NCBI RefSeq assembly: GCF_003044185.1
Contig: NZ_PYYB01000002.1
Span: 372,001-436,000 of the forward strand
DNA from: Paraconexibacter algicola
GTDB taxonomy: Bacteria > Actinomycetota > Thermoleophilia > Solirubrobacterales > Solirubrobacteraceae
Direction: 5' to 3'
Length of the DNA: 64,000 nucleotides
Part shown: positions 43,091 through 54,054 of the stretch, piece after piece
Layout: every line of letters begins with the position of its first letter
Position numbering within the stretch: the first letter of the stretch is position 1
Program-made: the position numbers and the translations under genes
The notes under the pieces: model-generated
The model's database searches: none
Told to the model about the DNA's origin: nothing
What the model saw: only the letters and a program-made list of their open reading frames with translations

Positions 43091-43921
43091 GTGGCCCAGA
43101 AGATCGCGATCCTCTCCCAGAAGGGCGGTACCGGGAAGACGACGGCGGTCCGCACCATCGCCGACGTGCTCCGGCGCACCGGCCTGCGGGTCCTGGCGGT
43201 CGATCTCGACCCGCAGGGCAACCTCTCCGACTACCTCGACGTGCCGCCGGACGCGACGCCGACGATCGGCGACGTGCTCGCCGGTCGCGCGAAGGCGCCC
43301 GCCGCCGTGCACCCGGCACCCGACCACGGGGAGCCCGCCGACCCGCCGGTCCCGCCGATCCACGTCATCCCCGCGAACCTGTCGCTGGCCGAGAGCGAGC
43401 TGCTGCTCGCGGGCAAGATGGGCCGTGAGCTGACGCTCCGCAAGGCGCTCAAGACGGTCGACGAGGACCACGACGTCGTGCTGATCGACTGCCCGCCCGC
43501 GCTGGGCCTGCTGACCGTGAACGCCCTCGTCGCGGCCGACTACGCGCTGCTGAGCTCGGAGGCGCAGTACTTCGCCCTGCAGGGCGTCGAGCAGGCGCTC
43601 GAGGTGATCGAGCTCGCGCGCGACGGCCTGAACCCGGATCTCGAGTGGCTCGGCGTGTTCTTCAACATCGCCGACATGCGGACCGTGCACTCGCGCGAGG
43701 CGTTCGACTCGCTCAAGGAGCACGTCGGCGACAAGCTCTTCGACACGACGATCCGGTCGTCGATCGCCTACGCGAACTCCGCGGAGCGCGCGACCTCGAT
43801 CCTCGACCACCGCCCCGACCTCGGCGCCGACTACCTGCACCTGACCGACGAGCTGCTCGCCCGGCTCGGCCGTCCGGCGCAGCGCCGCCGGCTCAAGGCG
43901 CTGCTGCCCGACCCGGCCTGA
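43091..43921 (+). CDS. ParA/Soj family ATPase (orphan)
   Basis: 276-aa Walker-type ATPase that partitions cargo over the nucleoid or membrane. Deviant Walker A with signature Lys, QKGGTGKTTA at residues 9-18; Walker A' VLAVDLDPQGNLSDYL; Walker B VVLIDCPPALG. No parB or parS-like site is next to it, so it may position something other than the chromosome origin. TAGGGT (43079-43084) lies 6 bases before the GTG start, leaderless. The gene ends 4 bases before the convergent sigma-factor gene. Confidence 0.92.
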   Translation: MAQKIAILSQKGGTGKTTAVRTIADVLRRTGLRVLAVDLDPQGNLSDYLDVPPDATPTIGDVLAGRAKAPAAVHPAPDHGEPADPPVPPIHVIPANLSLAESELLLAGKMGRELTLRKALKTVDEDHDVVLIDCPPALGLLTVNALVAADYALLSSEAQYFALQGVEQALEVIELARDGLNPDLEWLGVFFNIADMRTVHSREAFDSLKEHVGDKLFDTTIRSSIAYANSAERATSILDHRPDLGADYLHLTDELLARLGRPAQRRRLKALLPDPA

Positions 43922-43924
43922 GGG

Positions 43925-45337
43925 TCACGGGCAGAGCGCGGCGGTCCGCACCCAGCCGGTCAGCCGGAACTCGGTCTCGATCTGCGTCCAGGCGCCGCTG
44001 GCACTGCGGCGCAGCACCACGACGCGGTCGCCCGCGACGACGTTGCCGATGAACTCGCGGCCGGGGCTGCGCAGCACCGTCTGGCGCTCGCAGAGCCGAC
44101 CGGCCTTCTCGCCCGGACCGGCGCGACGCGGGTCGGCGATCGTCGAGCCCAGCGCGTCGGGCTGCTTGCAGACGACGCCGATGCGGGTCCGCAGCGCCTC
44201 GTCCAGGACGGAGTCGGCGAAGGTCACCGTGACGCCGCGGCTGCGGCCGTCGATCGCGGGGGCGAAGCGATAGCGGACCGGCAGCTCGCGGTCGGGCACG
44301 GCGAGGCCGACGGCGCGCATGCGTCCCGGGCAGCCGAGCCGCACGACGCGCTCGCCCGGGCGCTCGACCGGTCCGGCGGGCAGCTGCACCTTCGCGTAGG
44401 TCACGGCGACCCCGGCCGGGAGCCGCTCGCCGAGGGAGATCCGCTGGCCGGTCGCCGCGCCGGCCCCGAGGAGGCGCAGCGGCGTGGCCTCGCCCTCGCG
44501 GACGACGTCGCGGTCGAGGACCACGATCCCGGCGCCCGCGACGACGAGCGTCGCGGCGGCGGCGCCGGCCGCGACCTTGCCGCCGCCCCCGCCGCCGAGC
44601 TTCGCGGCGAGGGCGGCGGGGAGGATCCACAGCGGCGGGGTGAGCGCACGCAGGCGCCGGTCGACGCGCCGCAGGTCGCGGCGGTACCCGGTGCAGCCCG
44701 GGCAGCCGCGCGTGTGACGCAGCGCGTGCTCGGCGGGTCGGGTGCCGCGCTCGTGGGCGAGCATCAGCTGCTCGCGCACGTCGTGGCAGTCGGCGTCCCG
44801 CGCCTCGCGCGCGCGGACGAGCGCCCCGCGGGCCCGGGCGACGAGCATCTGCGCCGCCGCGGGGCTGACGCCGAGCTCCTCGCCGACGGCGGCCGCGTCA
44901 CGGCCGTCGAGCTCGCGCAGCAGCAGCGCGGTGCGCTGCTGGTCGGGCAGCGCGGCGATGTCCTCCACCAGCCGCCGGACGGTCTCCTTGCGGGTGAGGA
45001 TCATCGCGGGATCACCGCCGCCGCGGTCGGTGGTCTCGGCCGGGAGCTCGGCTTCGCCGTACCGGGCCCGCCGCGTCTCGTCGATCGCGCCGTTGCGGAC
45101 CAGGGTGTAGAGCCACGGCTTGATCTCGCGGACCGCCGGGCGTGACGGGTCGGCCAGGACCGCGTGCGCCTTGACGAGCGCGTCCTGGACGACGTCCTCG
45201 GCGTCGTGCTCGGAGCGCAGCAGCCGCCGGGCGTACGCGACGAGCGCCCGGCGGTGGCGGCGGTCGAGCTCGGCGAACGCGGAGCCGTCGCCGGTCTGCA
45301 GCCGGCGGACGAGCTCCGTGTCACCGCGTCGGGACAT
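43925..45337 (-). CDS. ECF sigma factor fused to zinc finger, TM helix and SH3-like domain
   Basis: 470-aa sigma-70 family factor with an extra C-terminal half. Region 2 covers ~18-85 (YARRLLRSEHDAEDVVQDAL), region 4 ~125-180 (ELDGRDAAAVGEELGVSPAAAQ). The anti-sigma-like zinc site is Cys in DADC plus HTRGCPGC. A membrane helix (VAAGAAAATLVVAGAGIVVL) puts the last ~200 residues outside the cell; their end, from VLRSPGREFIGNVVAGDRVVV to TGWVRTAAL, looks like a bacterial SH3 domain. The design suggests envelope sensing in one chain. It follows a small secreted-protein gene by 16 bases, probably as an operon. Confidence 0.86.
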   Translation of the reverse strand: MSRRGDTELVRRLQTGDGSAFAELDRRHRRALVAYARRLLRSEHDAEDVVQDALVKAHAVLADPSRPAVREIKPWLYTLVRNGAIDETRRARYGEAELPAETTDRGGGDPAMILTRKETVRRLVEDIAALPDQQRTALLLRELDGRDAAAVGEELGVSPAAAQMLVARARGALVRAREARDADCHDVREQLMLAHERGTRPAEHALRHTRGCPGCTGYRRDLRRVDRRLRALTPPLWILPAALAAKLGGGGGGKVAAGAAAATLVVAGAGIVVLDRDVVREGEATPLRLLGAGAATGQRISLGERLPAGVAVTYAKVQLPAGPVERPGERVVRLGCPGRMRAVGLAVPDRELPVRYRFAPAIDGRSRGVTVTFADSVLDEALRTRIGVVCKQPDALGSTIADPRRAGPGEKAGRLCERQTVLRSPGREFIGNVVAGDRVVVLRRSASGAWTQIETEFRLTGWVRTAALCP

Positions 45338-45353
45338 GCGTCGTCAGCCGCTC

Positions 45354-45788
45354 CTACCGGCTGCACAGCGCGTACATGGTGCCGCGCGTGTTCCGGCCGG
45401 CCTTGCCGTCGGCGCGGAGCTTCACCACGCGCGTGCCGACGTAGTCGCTGCGCTTCTGGGCGAGGTTGAAGATCGGGCCGCCCTCGCTCGGGGCGAGCCC
45501 GCGGTGGACGGAGCCCGACCCGCAGCTCAGCGTGAAGCGGGCGGTGTCCCCCGGCTGGACCTCGACGGTGCGGAAGACGATCTTCTGGTTCTTCTTCAGG
45601 GTCGTGCCCTTCTTGACGGACGTCCCGGGGATGTCGATCGGGGAGGCCTTGCCGGCCGCGATCGTCTGCTGCTTGCCGACCTCGGGCGCCTGGGCGGCAC
45701 CGGCCTGGGCGGCGGCCGCGACGCCCGGGGCGACGGCGGCGGCGAGCGCGATGGTGGTGAGGGTGGAGCGGATCTTGGTGGTGGTCAT
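45354..45788 (-). CDS. Small secreted hypothetical protein upstream of sigma factor
   Basis: 144-aa exported protein with a signal peptide ending near AQAGA (residues 1-30). The mature part is predicted beta-rich and contains KIVFRTVEVQPGDTARFTLSC and a C-terminal Cys, so one disulfide is possible. No family recognised. ATG 45788 is preceded by CAGGGG. It heads a two-gene unit with the membrane-anchored sigma factor, so it may be the extracytoplasmic ligand or regulator of that factor; this is an inference from gene order. Confidence 0.75.
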   Translation of the reverse strand: MTTTKIRSTLTTIALAAAVAPGVAAAAQAGAAQAPEVGKQQTIAAGKASPIDIPGTSVKKGTTLKKNQKIVFRTVEVQPGDTARFTLSCGSGSVHRGLAPSEGGPIFNLAQKRSDYVGTRVVKLRADGKAGRNTRGTMYALCSR

Positions 45789-45843
45789 GCCCCTGGGACG
45801 GGCCGTCGCCACGGGGGCAACGGCACACCTCACGGTTGGCGCG

Positions 45844-46695
45844 TCAAAGCTCGCTGACGCGGGCGCCCTGCACCTCGAACGGCACCCGCAGCACCTCGGC
45901 CCAGCCCGCCGTCTCGACGCGCAGCGTCTCGAACAGACGCCCGGTCTGCTCATAGTGGCTCCAGAACAGCACGGTCGGTCCGGCCCCGGAGATCGTCGCC
46001 CCGAGCGCGCCCAGCTCACGGGCGCGACCGAGCAGCTCGGCCGAGCGCGGGAACAGCGGGGCGCGGCGGTCCTGGTGCAGCCGGTCGGCCAGCCCCCGGG
46101 CGACGAGGTCCCAGTCGCCGCGGGCGAGGCCGAGCGTGAGCAGCGCGCCGTGGGCGACGTTGAAAACGGCCTCCCCCATCGGCACCTCGGCCGGCAGCGC
46201 GGCGCGCGCCTCCTTCGTGCGGACCGCCGTCTCGGGGACGACGAGCACCGCCTCGAGCCCGGTCGGCGGGTCGAACCGGGTCGCCTCGTCGTCGGCGCAG
46301 ATGACGAAGCCGCCCAGCAGCGCGGCGGCGACGTTGTCGGGATGGCCCTCCAGCTCGGTCGCCAGGGCGAGCAGGTCGGCGTCCAGCTCGAACAGATGGT
46401 CCGCGGCCATCAGGCCCGCCAGGTACGCGGCGGCGCTCGAGCCCAGGCCGCCGGAGAGCGGGATCTCCGACCGGATCCGGAAGGTGAAGGCGTCCGGCGG
46501 GGCGAGCCGCTCGAAGCCGCGCACGACGAGGTTGCGCCGGTCGCGGGCGATCTGCAGGTCCGTCTCGACCGCGAAGCGGCCGGTCTCCAGGACCTCCACC
46601 TCGACATGGAGCGCGAGCGCGGCCGCGAAGGTGTCGAACCCCGGACCGAGGTTGGCGCTGCTGGCGGGGACGCGGACGACGCGGCGACGCTGCAT
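45844..46695 (-). CDS. thrB: Homoserine kinase
   Basis: GHMP-family kinase (283 aa) that phosphorylates homoserine for threonine synthesis. PASSANLGPGFDTFAAAL at residues 10-27 is the N-terminal GHMP motif, PLSGGLGSSAAAYLAGL near residue 80 the ATP-binding loop, and GATISGAGPTVLF near residue 235 the third motif. TAGCGT ends 8 bases before the ATG, leaderless. It is not linked to hom-thrC: a divergent DUF427 gene lies between, so it is probably controlled separately. Confidence 0.95.
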   Translation of the reverse strand: MQRRRVVRVPASSANLGPGFDTFAAALALHVEVEVLETGRFAVETDLQIARDRRNLVVRGFERLAPPDAFTFRIRSEIPLSGGLGSSAAAYLAGLMAADHLFELDADLLALATELEGHPDNVAAALLGGFVICADDEATRFDPPTGLEAVLVVPETAVRTKEARAALPAEVPMGEAVFNVAHGALLTLGLARGDWDLVARGLADRLHQDRRAPLFPRSAELLGRARELGALGATISGAGPTVLFWSHYEQTGRLFETLRVETAGWAEVLRVPFEVQGARVSEL

Positions 46696-46748
46696 GGCGC
46701 GCCACGCTACGCGATCCGCCGGGTTCCCGTCCTCCGTACCCTCGATCG

Positions 46749-47030
46749 ATGAAGGCCACCTGGAACGGCGCCGTGATCGCCGAGAGCGACGACACCGTCG
46801 TCGTCGAGAACAACCACTACTTCCCGCGGGCCGCGCTCGCGGACGGGCTGTTCACCGAGTCCGACACCACGAGCGTCTGCCCGTGGAAGGGCACGGCGAG
46901 CTACCTGAACGTCGTCGTCGACGGGAAGACCAACGCGGACGCCGCCTGGTACTACCCGACGCCGAAGGACGCGGCCAAGGAGATCGAGGGCCGCGTCGCG
47001 TTCTGGAAGGGCGTGGAGGTGAGCGCCTGA
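46749..47030 (+). CDS. DUF427 family protein
   Basis: 93-aa single-domain protein of the DUF427 (NTP-transferase-like beta-barrel) family. The signature residues are visible: YFPRAAL, CPWKGTASYLNVVVDG, AAWYYPTPKDAAKEIEGRVAFW. Function unknown. TACCCT (46736-46741) lies 7 bases before the ATG, leaderless. It sits divergently from thrB and converges on thrC; I see no functional link to threonine synthesis. Confidence 0.93.
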   Translation: MKATWNGAVIAESDDTVVVENNHYFPRAALADGLFTESDTTSVCPWKGTASYLNVVVDGKTNADAAWYYPTPKDAAKEIEGRVAFWKGVEVSA

Positions 47031-47041
47031 GCGCCTGAGCG

Positions 47042-48106
47042 CTACCCCAGGACGGCGGACTCGACCGCCGCGAGCTCGGGCTCGCAGGGCACGACCCCCC
47101 CGGCCTGCTCCAGCGCGGTCTGCGGGTCCTTCAGGCCGTGCCCGGTGAGCACGCAGGCGACCCGGCCGGCGTCTCCGGCCCCGTGGACCATCAGGCCCGC
47201 GACGGAGGCGGCGCTGGCCGGCTCGCAGAAGACGCCCTCGTTGGCGGCGAGGAAGCGGTACGCGTCGAGGATCTGCTCGTCGGTCACCGCGGCGATGCGC
47301 CCGTTGGAGGTCGTCATCGCGGTCATCGCCTCCTCCCAGCGGGCGGGGTTGCCGATGCGGATCGCGCTGGCGACGGTCTCGGGCTTCTCCACCGGTGCGC
47401 CGTTGACCAGCGGCGCCGCCCCGGCCGCCTGGAAGCCGAACATCATCGGGCTGTGCCCGGCCTCCTGGAAGCCCTTCCAGTAGGCGGTGATGTTGCCCGC
47501 GTTGCCGACCGGGATGCACAGCGCGTCGAGCGAGCCGAGCTCCTCGACGAGCTCGAAGGCCGCGGTCTTCTGCCCCTCGATCCGGTACGGGTTGACCGAG
47601 TTGACGAGCGCGATGGGGTGCTCGGCGACGAGCTCGCGCACGAGCTGCAGTGCGACGTCGAAGTTGCCGCGCAGCGCGATCACGCGCGCGCCGTGCATGA
47701 GCGCCTGGGCGAGCTTGCCGGTCGCGATCTTCCCCTCGGGCACGATCACGGCGGGCTTGAGGCCCGCGCGCGACGCGTAGGCCGCGGCGCTCGCGGCCGT
47801 GTTGCCGGTGGAGGCGCAGATGACGGCCTTCGCGCCCTCCTTCTTGGCCTGCGTGACCGCGCAGCACATGCCACGGTCCTTGAACGAGCCGGTGGGGTTC
47901 GCGCCCTCGATCTTCAGGTAGACCTCGGCGCCGACGATCTCGCTGACGCGCTCGGCGAGCACGAGCGGCGTGGAGCCCTCCTGGAGCGTGACGATCGGGT
48001 CGTCGGCCTCGAACGGGAGCCGGTCGAGGAAGCGGTGGATGAGGCCGGGGTGGCCGTGGCCGCCGCGCTGGGCGCAGGGCGGACCGGACGGGTACGTGGT
48101 GCTCAC
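47042..48106 (-). CDS. thrC: Threonine synthase
   Basis: PLP-dependent enzyme (354 aa) converting O-phosphohomoserine to threonine. The cofactor Lys76 is in [23 protein letters not shown] binds substrate and [15 protein letters not shown] the PLP phosphate. Length fits the short class of threonine synthases found in actinobacteria. GTG 48106 lies inside the end of hom (4-base GTGA overlap), so it is translated with it. Last gene of the lysA-hom-thrC unit. Confidence 0.96.
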
Positions 48107-49332
48107 GCGGCGAACTCCTCGTCGAGGACGCGGATCGCCCGGGGCGTTCCGCGCAGGAAGTCGAGCCGCGAGATGAGGTCCACCGCGGCGAAGAACTTGG
48201 ACTCGAGCATCGGGTGCACGACCATCACGAGCCGTGCGCCGGAGCCGGTGCCCTGCTGCACGACGCTCTTGATCGACGCGCCCTGCAGGCCGAGCAGCTG
48301 CGCGATCTGCGCGAGCACGCCGGGCCGGTCCTCGACCTCGAGGTGCAGGTAGAACGCGGACTCCGCGTCGGCGACGACCGGCAGCTGCTGGGTCGTCTCC
48401 GGCGTCGAGGCGGGCGGGATCATCGCGCTGATGACGTCGCCGAGCACCGCGCTGGCGGTCTGCGGCCCACCGGCGCCCGGCCCGGACATCGTGATCTCGG
48501 TGATCGCGGGCGACTCGACGGTGACGGCGTTGAACGAGCCGTTGATCGAGGCGAGCGGATGGCCCGCGTACAGGAACGCGGGATGGACGCGCACCGAGAT
48601 GCCCTCCCCCACGCGCTCGGCGGTCCCGATGAGCTTCAGCGACAGCCCGAGGTCGCGCGCGTAGGCGATGTCCTCCTGCGTGATCTGCTCGATGCCCTCG
48701 TAGCGGACGTCGTCGAGGTGCACGGGGGTGTCGAACGCCAGCCGCGCGATGATCGCCATCTTCGCCGCCGCGTCCTTGCCGTTGACGTCGTCGGACGGGT
48801 CGGCCTCCGCGTAGCCCAGGCGCTGCGCCTCGGCGAGCGCGTCGGCGTACGAGGCGCCGGTGCTCGCCATCTGCGTGAGGATGAAGTTCGTGGTGCCGTT
48901 GACGATGCCGTGCACGCGGTCGACGTGGGCGGCGGCCAGCGACTCCTGCAGCACCCGGATGACCGGCACGACACCGGCGACCGCGGCCTCGAACCGCAGC
49001 TGCACCCCGTGCTCGCGCGCGGCGGCCCACAGCTCCTCGCCGTGGTGGGCGAGCAGCTGCTTGTTGGCCGTCACGACGTGCTTGCCCGCCGCCATCGCCG
49101 CGAGCACGTAGCCGCGCGCGGGCTCGAGGCCGCCGATCAGCTCGACGACGAGGTCGCTGGCGGCGAGGATCTCCTCGAAGGTCCCGCGCGAGGTCGTGAG
49201 CACCCCGGTGATCTCGGGGCGCAGGCCGGTGGTCGCGGCGATCTGGTCGGCGCGCTCGGGCAGCAGCTCGGCGAACGCGGCACCGACGGTGCCGTGGCCG
49301 AGCAGGCCGATCTTGAAGGGCTCAGCAGTCAC
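48103..49332 (-). CDS. hom: Homoserine dehydrogenase with ACT domain
   Basis: NAD(P)-dependent enzyme (409 aa) reducing aspartate semialdehyde to homoserine. Rossmann motif [10 protein letters not shown] at residues 7-16, catalytic/substrate residues in [12 protein letters not shown] and [13 protein letters not shown], and a C-terminal ACT domain from about 330 ([21 protein letters not shown]) for feedback by threonine. GTG 49332 was chosen because the Rossmann strand follows at once; it overlaps the end of lysA by 11 bases. A longer upstream reading would add a Pro/Ser-rich stretch inside lysA. Confidence 0.95.
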
Positions 49333-50593
49333 GGGCGTAGAGGTCCTCGTAGGTCTCGCGGCGGACGACGACGGTGGCCTCGCCACGCTCGACGAACACG
49401 ATCGGCGGGCGCAGCGCGCCGTTGTAGTTGTTGGCCATGGCGTGCCCGTAGGCCCCGGTCACCGGGGTGGCGACGACGTCCCCCACGTGCGGGGTGGGCA
49501 GCGCCGCGCCGTCGACGATGACGTCGCTGCTCTCGCAGTGCTTGCCGGTGAGCTTCACGGTGGCCTGCGGCTCGGCGGCGGCGCGGTCGGCGAGGACCGC
49601 CTCGTAGCGGGCGCCGTAGAGCATCGGCCGCAGGTTGTCGGACATGCCGCCGTCGACGCCGACCCAGGTGGAGACGTTCTGCTTGATCGTCTCGACGGTG
49701 TAGAGCGTCACGCCGGCGTTGGCGACGAGCGCGCGGCCGGGCTCGTCGACGATCCGCCGGCCGGGACCGAGCAGCTCGCGGACCGCGGAGACCTTCGCCT
49801 CGACGTAGTCCTCGATCGACGGGGGCCGCTGGTCGGCGGTGTACGCGACGCCGAGGCCGCCGCCGAGGTTGTAGGTGCGGAAGTCGCCGAGGCCGGCGAT
49901 CGCGCGGACCGCCTCCCGGAACGGCGCGAGCTCGAGCAGCTGCGAGCCGATGTGCAGGTGCAGCCCGTCGAGCTGCAGGTGCGGGCTGGCCTGCGCGCGG
50001 GCGATCGCGTCGGCGGCCGCGGCGAGGCCGAGCCCGAACTTCGAGTCGGCCTGGCCGGTCGAGATGCCGGCGTGCGTCTCGCCGCGCACGTCGGGGGTGA
50101 CGCGCACGAGGACGGTCTGCGGGCCGCGGCCGTCGGCGGCGACGACGCGCTCGAGCCGCTCGAGGTCGTGCAGGGAGTCCAGGACGACGGTGCCGACGCC
50201 CGCCTCGCGGGCGAACCGCAGCTCGTCCTCGCTCTTGGCGTTGCCGTGGAGCGTGATCCGCGCGGGCTCGAACCCGCCGCGCAGCGCGAGCGCGAGCTCG
50301 CCGCCCCCGGCGACGTCGCAGCCGATGCCCTCGCCGGCGAGCAGCCGGTAGACGGCGGTGCACGGGAACGCCTTGGACGCGAACGTCACCTCGAAGTCGT
50401 CGCAGCGCGCGGCGAACGCCTGGACGAACGCGCGCGCCCGCGCCCGGACGTCGTCGACGACGACGACGTAGGCAGGGGTGCCGTGCTCGCGGGCCAGCTC
50501 CACGGCGTCGCAGCCACCGAGGATCAGGTGACCGCGCTCGTCGACCGTGGTGCCGAGGGGCCAGACGTGCGAGAGCTGCTGTGCCGCGGCCAT
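49322..50593 (-). CDS. lysA: Diaminopimelate decarboxylase
   Basis: PLP enzyme (423 aa) making lysine from meso-diaminopimelate. Lys74 in FASKAFPC should bind PLP; HLHIGSQ, the GGGLGVAY glycine loop and the active-site Cys of GKHCESSDV are all present. First gene of lysA-hom-thrC. The end overlaps hom by 11 bases, which implies translational coupling between the lysine and threonine branches. ATG 50593 is the first plausible start; the divergent hydrolase gene begins 37 bases away. Confidence 0.96.
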   Translation of the reverse strand: MAAAQQLSHVWPLGTTVDERGHLILGGCDAVELAREHGTPAYVVVVDDVRARARAFVQAFAARCDDFEVTFASKAFPCTAVYRLLAGEGIGCDVAGGGELALALRGGFEPARITLHGNAKSEDELRFAREAGVGTVVLDSLHDLERLERVVAADGRGPQTVLVRVTPDVRGETHAGISTGQADSKFGLGLAAAADAIARAQASPHLQLDGLHLHIGSQLLELAPFREAVRAIAGLGDFRTYNLGGGLGVAYTADQRPPSIEDYVEAKVSAVRELLGPGRRIVDEPGRALVANAGVTLYTVETIKQNVSTWVGVDGGMSDNLRPMLYGARYEAVLADRAAAEPQATVKLTGKHCESSDVIVDGAALPTPHVGDVVATPVTGAYGHAMANNYNGALRPPIVFVERGEATVVVRRETYEDLYARDC

Positions 50594-52854: not shown

Positions 52855-54054
52855 CTAGAGGTAGCCCATCGGGTTGACCGGGGACCCGTTGATCCGGACC
52901 TCGAAGTGGAGGTGCGGGCCGGTCGAGTTGCCGGTGTTGCCGACGAGGCCGATGACCTGCCCGCGCCGCACGTTGGCGCCGACCGAGGTCTTGAACGCGG
53001 ACTGGTGCGCGTAGCACGTCGACATCGACGCGGTGTGCTGCACGCAGGTGTAGTTGCCGTAGCCGCCGGTCGGGCCCATGAGCACGACCTTGCCGCTGTC
53101 GGCGGCGTAGATCGGGGTGCCGACGGGGGCGGCGATGTCGATGCCGGCGTGCAGGCGGCCCCAGCGCATGCCGAACGGGCTGGTGAAGGTGCCGTTGGTC
53201 GGCATCGACAGCGGGCCGCCGCTGCCCTTGAAGCCGCCCGCGGGGGGCGTCGTGGCGGCCGGGCCGCGCAGCGCGCGCTCGATCTTCGCCTGCTCCTTCT
53301 CGAGGCCCTCGAGGTGCCCCTCGAGGTCCTTGCGCTCGACGCGGACCTTGGTCAGCGCGGCCTGCTTGCCGGCGCGGGTGCGCTCCTTGCCGACGCGCGT
53401 GTCGATGATCGCCTGCTTGATCTGGGCGATCTCGTCGCGGCGCTGCTGGATGCGGCTGGTGACCTTCGCCTGCCGGCCCTCGAGCCGGTCCAGGCGCGCG
53501 GCGGTGCTGGTGGCGTCCTTCTTGGCGTTCTTGACGAGCGTGACGATCGTGCGGTCCTGCTCGTGGATGCGCTCGAGGAAGTCGCCGCGCTCGACGAGGT
53601 CGGCGAAGCCGTCGGCGTTCAGCACGACGGTGACGAGGTCGGGCGTGTCGGCCTTGTAGAGCTCGGCGAGCCGGTTGGAGAGCACGACGCGCGCCTCGGC
53701 CAGGCGCGCCTTGAGGCGCACGAGGCGGCGGCGCTCGGAACGCAGGTCGGCCTGGATGCGGGTGAGCGCGGCGCGCTGGGTGTCGAGGTCGCTCTGGACG
53801 ACCGCCTGCCGGCGGTTGTAGCGGTCGATGCGGTCCTGCAGGCTCTCGATCCGCTGCGTGTACTGCGTGATGTCGCGCGAGAGGACCCGCTCGGTGCCCT
53901 TGCGCTTGCCGATCTTGCCGCGGGTGACCTCGATCTTCTTCTGGATCGCCTGGGCGCTGCGCGCGGTCGGCTCCTCGCCGCTGGAGAGCACGGGCAGGGC
54001 CGCCCACAGCAGGAGCGGCAGGAGGACGGAGACGAGCAGCAGGCGCAGACGCAC
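52855..54054 (-). CDS. M23 (LytM) peptidase with coiled coil, EnvC-like
   Basis: 399-aa exported protein. Residues 1-24 form a signal peptide or anchor, residues ~35-255 a long two-part coiled coil, and residues ~285-399 a LytM domain. Zinc ligands are seen: HAGIDIAAP (His/Asp) and HLHFE (His), so it should be catalytically active, unlike the degenerate EnvC. It likely cleaves peptidoglycan crossbridges or activates an amidase during division. GTG start, with TAGCGT ending 8 bases upstream. Divergent from htpX. Confidence 0.92.
   Translation of the reverse strand: MRLRLLLVSVLLPLLLWAALPVLSSGEEPTARSAQAIQKKIEVTRGKIGKRKGTERVLSRDITQYTQRIESLQDRIDRYNRRQAVVQSDLDTQRAALTRIQADLRSERRRLVRLKARLAEARVVLSNRLAELYKADTPDLVTVVLNADGFADLVERGDFLERIHEQDRTIVTLVKNAKKDATSTAARLDRLEGRQAKVTSRIQQRRDEIAQIKQAIIDTRVGKERTRAGKQAALTKVRVERKDLEGHLEGLEKEQAKIERALRGPAATTPPAGGFKGSGGPLSMPTNGTFTSPFGMRWGRLHAGIDIAAPVGTPIYAADSGKVVLMGPTGGYGNYTCVQHTASMSTCYAHQSAFKTSVGANVRRGQVIGLVGNTGNSTGPHLHFEVRINGSPVNPMGYL

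What the first reader, a model, noticed from the sequence alone, without database searches (positions are those of the whole stretch)
43925..45788. Membrane-anchored sigma factor with external SH3-like domain and a secreted partner
One chain carries sigma regions 2 and 4, an anti-sigma zinc finger, a membrane helix and an outside domain. It is preceded in the same unit by a small secreted protein. This suggests a self-contained envelope sensor where the external part controls the sigma part, with the secreted protein as ligand. ECF factors with C-terminal membrane extensions are known, but this pairing with a secreted protein is not one I recognise.
Basis: partly seen in the sequence, partly recalled or inferred. 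Interest (0 to 1): 0.52.

Follow-up and report, generated by a model that had tools for sequence, protein, structure and literature searches.

The report
Sensor sigma factor with secreted twin
A soil bacterium encodes a gene switch that appears to be anchored in the cell membrane with a sensing part outside, and right next to it a small exported protein that is an old copy of that same sensing part; the pairing is conserved in related bacteria and suggests an undescribed way of tuning such switches.

Summary
Window 43925-45337(-) encodes one 470-aa chain: ECF sigma regions 2 and 4, an anti-sigma zinc motif, a hydrophobic segment, a beta-sandwich domain and an SH3-like domain. A 144-aa exported protein (45354-45788) ends 16 nt upstream. 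New result: the exported protein is homologous to the sigma factor's own external beta-sandwich (profile-profile E about 1e-15; same seven-strand order in separate AlphaFold models). In other loci the exported neighbour is a free copy of the SH3 domain; two loci carry both in tandem. Of 32 intact loci found in Thermoleophilia (one, G071, with an in-frame stop), 28 have at least one such twin upstream on the same strand, in all eight genera of the order that hold this sigma type. Attached and free beta-sandwich copies form separate clades, so the pair is old and co-inherited. The sigma chain is a known kind (compare ECF48/52/53); the cotranscribed soluble twin was not found in the papers searched. 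Most likely the twin works with the ectodomain as a detachable or competing co-sensor that sets when the sigma part is released. Nothing was tested at the bench.

The parts
43925..45337 (-). ECF sigma factor with fused anti-sigma zinc motif, hydrophobic segment and two-domain extracytoplasmic part; 470 aa
45062..45262 (-). sigma region 2 (aa 26-92)
   Evidence: Pfam Sigma70_r2 E 3.1e-13
44819..44959 (-). sigma region 4 (aa 127-173)
   Evidence: Pfam Sigma70_r4_2 E 2.7e-9
44693..44788 (-). anti-sigma zinc motif C184-x23-H208-x3-C212-x2-C215
   Evidence: four residues invariant in 19 of 19 homologues; zf-HC2 reached by 1 of 19
44519..44575 (-). probable membrane segment (aa 255-273)
   Evidence: mean hydropathy 2.2; not modelled as helix by AlphaFold
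44150..44506 (-). external beta-sandwich domain (aa 278-396), homologous to the secreted protein
   Evidence: hhalign prob 98.7 and 98.4, E 1.4e-15 and 8.6e-15; strands in model
43928..44128 (-). external SH3-like domain (aa 404-470)
   Evidence: SH3_3 weak here, 13 of 19 homologues; all-beta in model with high local confidence
45354..45788 (-). exported twin: signal peptide plus one free-standing beta-sandwich domain, 144 aa
45338..45353 (-). 16-nt gap between secreted stop and sigma start; no room for a terminator
45789..45843 (-). 55-nt gap after homoserine kinase; the room for a promoter of the pair's own
   Evidence: no match to the Patulibacter motif in the window with up to 3 mismatches

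Best explanation
Shown: the locus encodes a sigma factor covalently joined to its own zinc-type anti-sigma region, a hydrophobic segment and two beta domains, and, in the gene directly upstream, an exported protein that is an ancient free-standing copy of one of those two domains. Inferred: the beta domains lie outside the membrane; the zinc region holds sigma regions 2 and 4 silent at the membrane; the exported twin and the ectodomain either bind each other or bind the same envelope target (SH3b domains commonly bind cell wall; recalled), so the twin acts as a detachable co-sensor. When the envelope is disturbed and the twin is drawn off or runs short, the ectodomain changes state, the chain is cut or opened, and the sigma part transcribes its targets, probably including its own operon, which restores the twin and resets the switch. 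I favour an inhibitory, RseB-like role for the twin; the sign is not determined.
For: Homology of twin and ectodomain: hhalign E 1.4e-15 and 8.6e-15; the HMM of sigma domains finds 16 of 16 secreted proteins (E<=2e-5; best of 820 shuffles 0.015) and the HMM of secreted proteins finds 25 of 25 sigma proteins (worst 0.0098; best shuffle 0.033); seven strands in the same order in two separate models. Linkage: 28 of 32 intact sigma loci have a twin upstream, same strand, gaps -11 to +79 nt in the 23 loci measured. Free SH3 copies in 23 genomes: 40 rows = 21 inside sigma genes, 18 directly upstream of one, 1 elsewhere. Five of seven sigma proteins that lack SH3 have a free SH3 gene upstream, a Rosetta-stone pattern arguing for joint action. 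Attached (24) and free (18) beta-sandwich copies are reciprocally monophyletic, support 100/98, in all 200 bootstrap trees. Seven other membrane-type sigma genes of the window's own genome, with Pro/Ala-rich tails, have no such neighbour. Precedents: RseB/MucB shields RseA/MucA outside the membrane; RsgI6's sensor domain is 57% identical to the secreted Xyn10D.
Against: No binding, cleavage or expression data. 4 of 32 intact loci (G189a, G192a, G178c, G109) have no detectable twin, and 7 of 19 secreted homologues are not beside an intact sigma gene, so the domain can work alone. A secreted copy is no more like its own sigma's domain than like others' (20.7% v 21.9% identity over 10 pairs). Distance correlation within pairs (r 0.68) is no higher than secreted copy v sigma N-terminus (0.82), so it shows co-inheritance, not contact. 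Topology is inferred. Patulibacter secreted copies lost both cysteines that the attached copies keep, so the copies are not equivalent.
Confidence: 0.45

Rival explanations
1. The secreted protein is an output, not a regulator: an envelope protein whose amount or assembly the sigma factor monitors through an attached copy of the same domain, as RsgI6 carries a domain like the secreted xylanase Xyn10D.
For: Same-domain logic is documented for RsgI6/Xyn10D (passages of PMC4711584); twin shares the operon; 7 of 19 secreted homologues are not beside an intact sigma gene, as expected of a protein with its own job.
Against: The twin gene is nearly always the neighbour rather than a distant target; SH3-less sigma proteins have a free SH3 gene upstream in 5 of 7 loci, which fits a shared sensor better than an output.
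Confidence: 0.3
2. Passive relic: the ectodomain was duplicated or split off once, and the two copies stay together by vertical descent without acting on each other.
For: One old split with no sign of gene conversion; 4 of 32 intact loci do without a twin; distance correlation is explained by shared descent.
Against: Adjacency and strand are kept although the domains have diverged to about a third identity, in nine genera, for two unrelated domains, while the further upstream genes vary; 18 of 19 free SH3 copies sit beside a sigma gene.
Confidence: 0.15
3. One reading: the secreted protein is a dedicated ligand that switches the sigma factor on.
For: Conserved pairing; a homologous domain could bind the ectodomain.
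Against: A co-expressed activating ligand would tend to keep the switch on; homology points rather to co-sensor or competitor. Sign untested.
Confidence: 0.1

Closest known systems
ECF52 (SCO4117 of Streptomyces coelicolor) and ECF48/ECF53: ECF sigma factors fused to a C-terminal membrane anti-sigma part
   Same: Sigma regions 2/4, then zinc motif, membrane part and outside domain in one chain; actinobacterial; proteolytic release proposed (passages of PMC8999054 and PMC5826349).
   Different: No carbohydrate-binding domain found here; instead a beta-sandwich plus SH3, and a secreted copy of one of them encoded directly upstream. No such partner is mentioned in the passages read.
RpoE-RseA-RseB / AlgU-MucA-MucB
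   Same: A secreted protein and a membrane anti-sigma belong to the sigma system; RseB/MucB bind the outside part and block cleavage (passages of PMC7400510).
   Different: In the passages read RseB is not described as a copy of RseA's outside domain; here sigma and anti-sigma are one chain and the partner is homologous to the sensor itself.
SigI/RsgI6 of Clostridium thermocellum
   Same: Sensor ectodomain homologous to a secreted protein of the regulon (passages of PMC4711584).
   Different: Sigma and anti-sigma are separate proteins; the secreted homologue is an enzyme, not a single-domain twin directly upstream.

Membership tests
ECF sigma factor | regions 2 and 4 without region 3 | tested here: met
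   Pfam Sigma70_r2 and Sigma70_r4_2, no region 3 model; TIGR02937 sigma70-ECF above cut-off; Foldseek best hits are ECF sigma and sigma/anti-sigma structures
ECF sigma with fused C-terminal anti-sigma (kind of ECF48/52/53) | zinc anti-sigma motif after region 4 in the same chain | tested here: met
   C-H-C-C invariant in 19 of 19; zf-HC2 model reached by only 1 of 19
ECF sigma with fused C-terminal anti-sigma (kind of ECF48/52/53) | transmembrane helix between cytoplasmic and outside parts | tested here: inconclusive
   hydropathy 2.2 at aa 255-273, second weaker segment 229-247; low confidence in model
ECF52 | extracytoplasmic carbohydrate-binding domain | tested here: not met
   no carbohydrate-binding Pfam model at E<=1 in the chain or among 19 C-terminal halves at E<=0.01; so not filed as ECF52
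ECF48/ECF52/ECF53 | assignment by the ECF classification models | not testable with these tools
   no ECF group models on hand; the classification paper is not held
Bacterial SH3 (SH3b) domain | match to SH3_3 above Pfam cut-off | tested here: inconclusive
   window protein 19.2 bits against 27; 13 of 19 homologues match at E<=0.01
RseB/MucB | sequence or fold relation of the secreted protein to RseB/MucB | tested here: inconclusive
   not among PDB sequence hits of the secreted profile nor among listed fold matches; absence is not proof
RseB/MucB | binds the outside part of the anti-sigma and blocks cleavage | not testable with these tools
   needs binding and protease assays
RsgI anti-sigma | separate SigI-type sigma and RsgI N-terminal domain | tested here: not met
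   chain is a fused ECF sigma; no RsgI domain in the Pfam scan

The most novel reading that the evidence does not exclude
A general design in Thermoleophilia: outside domains of a membrane-bound sigma factor have soluble twins made from the same operon, and the twins associate with the sensor in the envelope, so sigma release reads the free-to-bound ratio of a protein that is a copy of the sensor itself.
Probability: 0.35. Interest if true: 0.78.

Novelty: new variant of a known kind. Interest (0 to 1): 0.6.

Why it matters
One-chain sigma/anti-sigma sensors occur in several actinobacterial groups, and how they sense is mostly unknown. Here the genome itself points at a partner and at a likely interface: the partner is a copy of the sensor domain, small and predicted to fold on its own, with two natural loci in Patulibacter minatonensis DSM 18081. 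That makes the question of what such fused sigma factors sense testable with two purified proteins.

Tried and rejected
Rejected: chance neighbour (28 of 32 intact loci). Rejected: repeated recent duplication or gene conversion of the mid domain (own v other identity). For SH3 this cannot be excluded: the tree has 63 columns and needs 3 label changes.

Led nowhere or inconclusive: fold of the secreted domain (Foldseek no hit at E<=0.001; VIA-align best Z 5.6, a fibrillar adhesin domain, among unrelated jelly-roll/cupin rows). A sequence hit of the secreted profile to a biofilm-associated surface protein (7dm0, E 2e-6) is the sum of two repeats scoring E 0.2-0.4 each, and the sigma-domain profile finds nothing; not relied on. 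No Pfam family for the secreted domain. Promoter: no sigma-70 match in the region (not suited to ECF promoters); the Patulibacter 16-mer is absent from the window at up to 3 mismatches. Third upstream secreted gene family (A10): nothing useful in Pfam or PDB. A site-2 protease exists in the genome but also in all 14 control genomes, so it says little. Alignment A4 was not used. ECF group assignment not possible.

Counting caveats: genome searches score only part of the first-look candidates, so counts are lower bounds. G187 and G188 give near-identical hits; without G187's three loci the count is 25 of 29. G071's sigma gene has an in-frame stop. G073 was left out of the 32 as a remnant (sigma N-terminus and twin gone). 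In G181 the twin is kept and only a sigma C-terminal scrap remains.

Full report
What is there. On the minus strand, homoserine kinase ends at 45844; 55 nt later a 144-aa exported protein starts (45788-45354); 16 nt later a 470-aa sigma factor starts (45337-43925). The sigma chain has region 2 (aa 26-92) and region 4 (aa 127-173) by Pfam, a C-H-C-C zinc motif at aa 184-215 invariant in 19 of 19 homologues, a hydrophobic segment at aa 255-273, and two all-beta domains at about aa 272-391 and 411-464 in an AlphaFold model made from six sequences (mean pLDDT 75, pTM 0.41). The segment aa 231-268 was not modelled, and a second weaker hydrophobic stretch lies at aa 229-247, so the single membrane crossing is an inference; it is supported by the fact that the domain beyond it is homologous to a protein with a signal peptide.

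The key result. The exported protein is a free-standing copy of the sigma factor's own first external domain. The lead came when a search with the secreted protein hit inside the sigma gene of a Patulibacter genome. Profile-profile comparison gives E 1.4e-15 (17 secreted v 25 sigma sequences) and 8.6e-15 (16 v 24). An HMM built only from sigma domains finds 16 of 16 secreted proteins at E<=2e-5, best of 820 shuffled sequences 0.015; an HMM built only from secreted proteins finds 25 of 25 sigma proteins, worst 0.0098, best shuffle 0.033. The two proteins were modelled separately and show the same seven strands in the same order (secreted: 41-43, 68-77, 82-88, 94-100, 106-109, 121-127, 134-143; sigma: 272-279, 310-319, 330-335, 341-346, 356-360, 368-373, 382-391).

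How general it is. In 232 genomes of the order, the sigma-domain profile hits 22 genomes in 38 places, of which 32 are sigma genes and 6 secreted proteins. One of the 32 (G073) is a remnant. A survey of 399 genomes spread over the class adds one sigma locus in another family, G447. Of the resulting 32 intact loci, 28 have a free copy of one of the sigma's own external domain types upstream on the same strand: ten have the beta-sandwich twin directly upstream (the window's type, including G447), and eighteen have a small exported SH3 protein directly upstream, of which two (G196, G106) have a beta-sandwich twin just before it and one (G075) has one about 1.4 kb further up. In five of the eighteen the sigma itself has lost its SH3 domain. 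Four loci (G189a, G192a, G178c, G109) have no twin. Gaps in the 23 loci measured run from -11 to +79 nt, several overlapping by 4 or 8 nt. All eight genera of the order that hold this sigma type hold the pairing. Named members are Patulibacter minatonensis DSM 18081 (two loci), P. americanus DSM 16676 and two Patulibacter MAGs; the window's own genus was not named.

Specificity. The secreted-protein profile finds 19 secreted proteins at E<=1e-5 in 232 genomes; 12 are in a sigma operon and 7 are not. One of the 7 (G181) is followed by a scrap of a sigma C-terminus, so it derives from a pair. The free-SH3 profile finds 40 places in 23 genomes: 21 inside sigma genes, 18 directly upstream of one, 1 elsewhere. 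Seven sigma proteins lack the SH3 domain, and five of these have a free SH3 gene upstream. The other membrane-type sigma paralogues of the window's genome end in Pro/Ala-rich tails, and none has a neighbour similar to its tail.

Evolution. In a tree of 42 beta-sandwich domains the 24 attached and 18 free copies form two clades (support 100/98, all 200 bootstrap trees). A free copy is not closer to its own partner than to others (20.7% v 21.9% identity, 10 pairs), and distances correlate within pairs (r 0.68, p 2e-4), as they also do with the sigma N-terminus (r 0.82). So one old split was followed by long co-inheritance. This shows a kept partnership, not contact. The SH3 tree has too few columns to decide.

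Mechanism. Known for related systems: fused zinc anti-sigma regions are expected to hold the sigma part silent and to be removed by proteolysis (passages of PMC8999054 and PMC5826349); a secreted partner can bind and shield the outside part of an anti-sigma (RseB/MucB, passages of PMC7400510); and a sensor domain can be a copy of a secreted protein of the regulon (RsgI6 and Xyn10D, passages of PMC4711584). The twin combines features of the last two. I commit to a co-sensor that binds the ectodomain or its envelope target and keeps the sigma part held; the direction of the effect and proteolysis are inference. The SH3-less sigma proteins with a free SH3 gene next door are the best argument for direct joint action.

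Literature. Searches listed no paper that by title or abstract describes a cotranscribed soluble copy of a sigma or anti-sigma ectodomain; they cover only open-licence PMC papers, and the main ECF reclassification paper is not held. I read passages of four papers only, no whole paper.

Verdict. Observation confirmed; interpretation partly supported and sharpened: not a sigma factor with an unrelated secreted ligand, but a sigma factor with a secreted twin of its own sensor. The sigma chain is of a known kind; the twin makes it a new variant.

Noticed in passing
L078, L080 (Patulibacter minatonensis DSM 18081): A 16-mer with inverted ends, GAACGTGCGTGCGTTC, lies upstream of both secreted twin genes and has exactly two perfect copies in the genome; near copies occur upstream of the twin in other Patulibacter. 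Candidate promoter or operator.
   Followed up: partly
L076, L062, L077, L047, L060, L075, L035: A further exported protein of about 235-270 aa (alignment A10), often with a Lys-rich tail, lies upstream of the twin gene(s) in seven of the sigma loci; no useful Pfam or PDB match.
   Followed up: partly
L117 (G181) and L089 (G073): Decayed loci: in G181 the twin is kept and the sigma gene is reduced to a C-terminal scrap; in G073 the twin and the sigma N-terminus are gone and the ectodomain remains.
   Followed up: partly
L093-L097, L099, L100 (window's own genome): At least seven further ECF-type sigma genes have about 200-340 aa C-terminal extensions rich in Pro/Ala, a large expansion of membrane-type sigma factors in one genome.
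   Followed up: partly
43091-43921 (+): ParA/Soj-like ATPase gene converges on the sigma gene with 3 nt between the two ends.
   Followed up: no
45844-49386 (-): Genes read as homoserine dehydrogenase, threonine synthase and homoserine kinase lie just upstream on the same strand; the sigma pair could be read from this operon in this genome (by eye).
   Followed up: no
52855-54054 (-): Coiled-coil protein with a C-terminal M23-like peptidase region, a likely cell-wall hydrolase (by eye).
   Followed up: no
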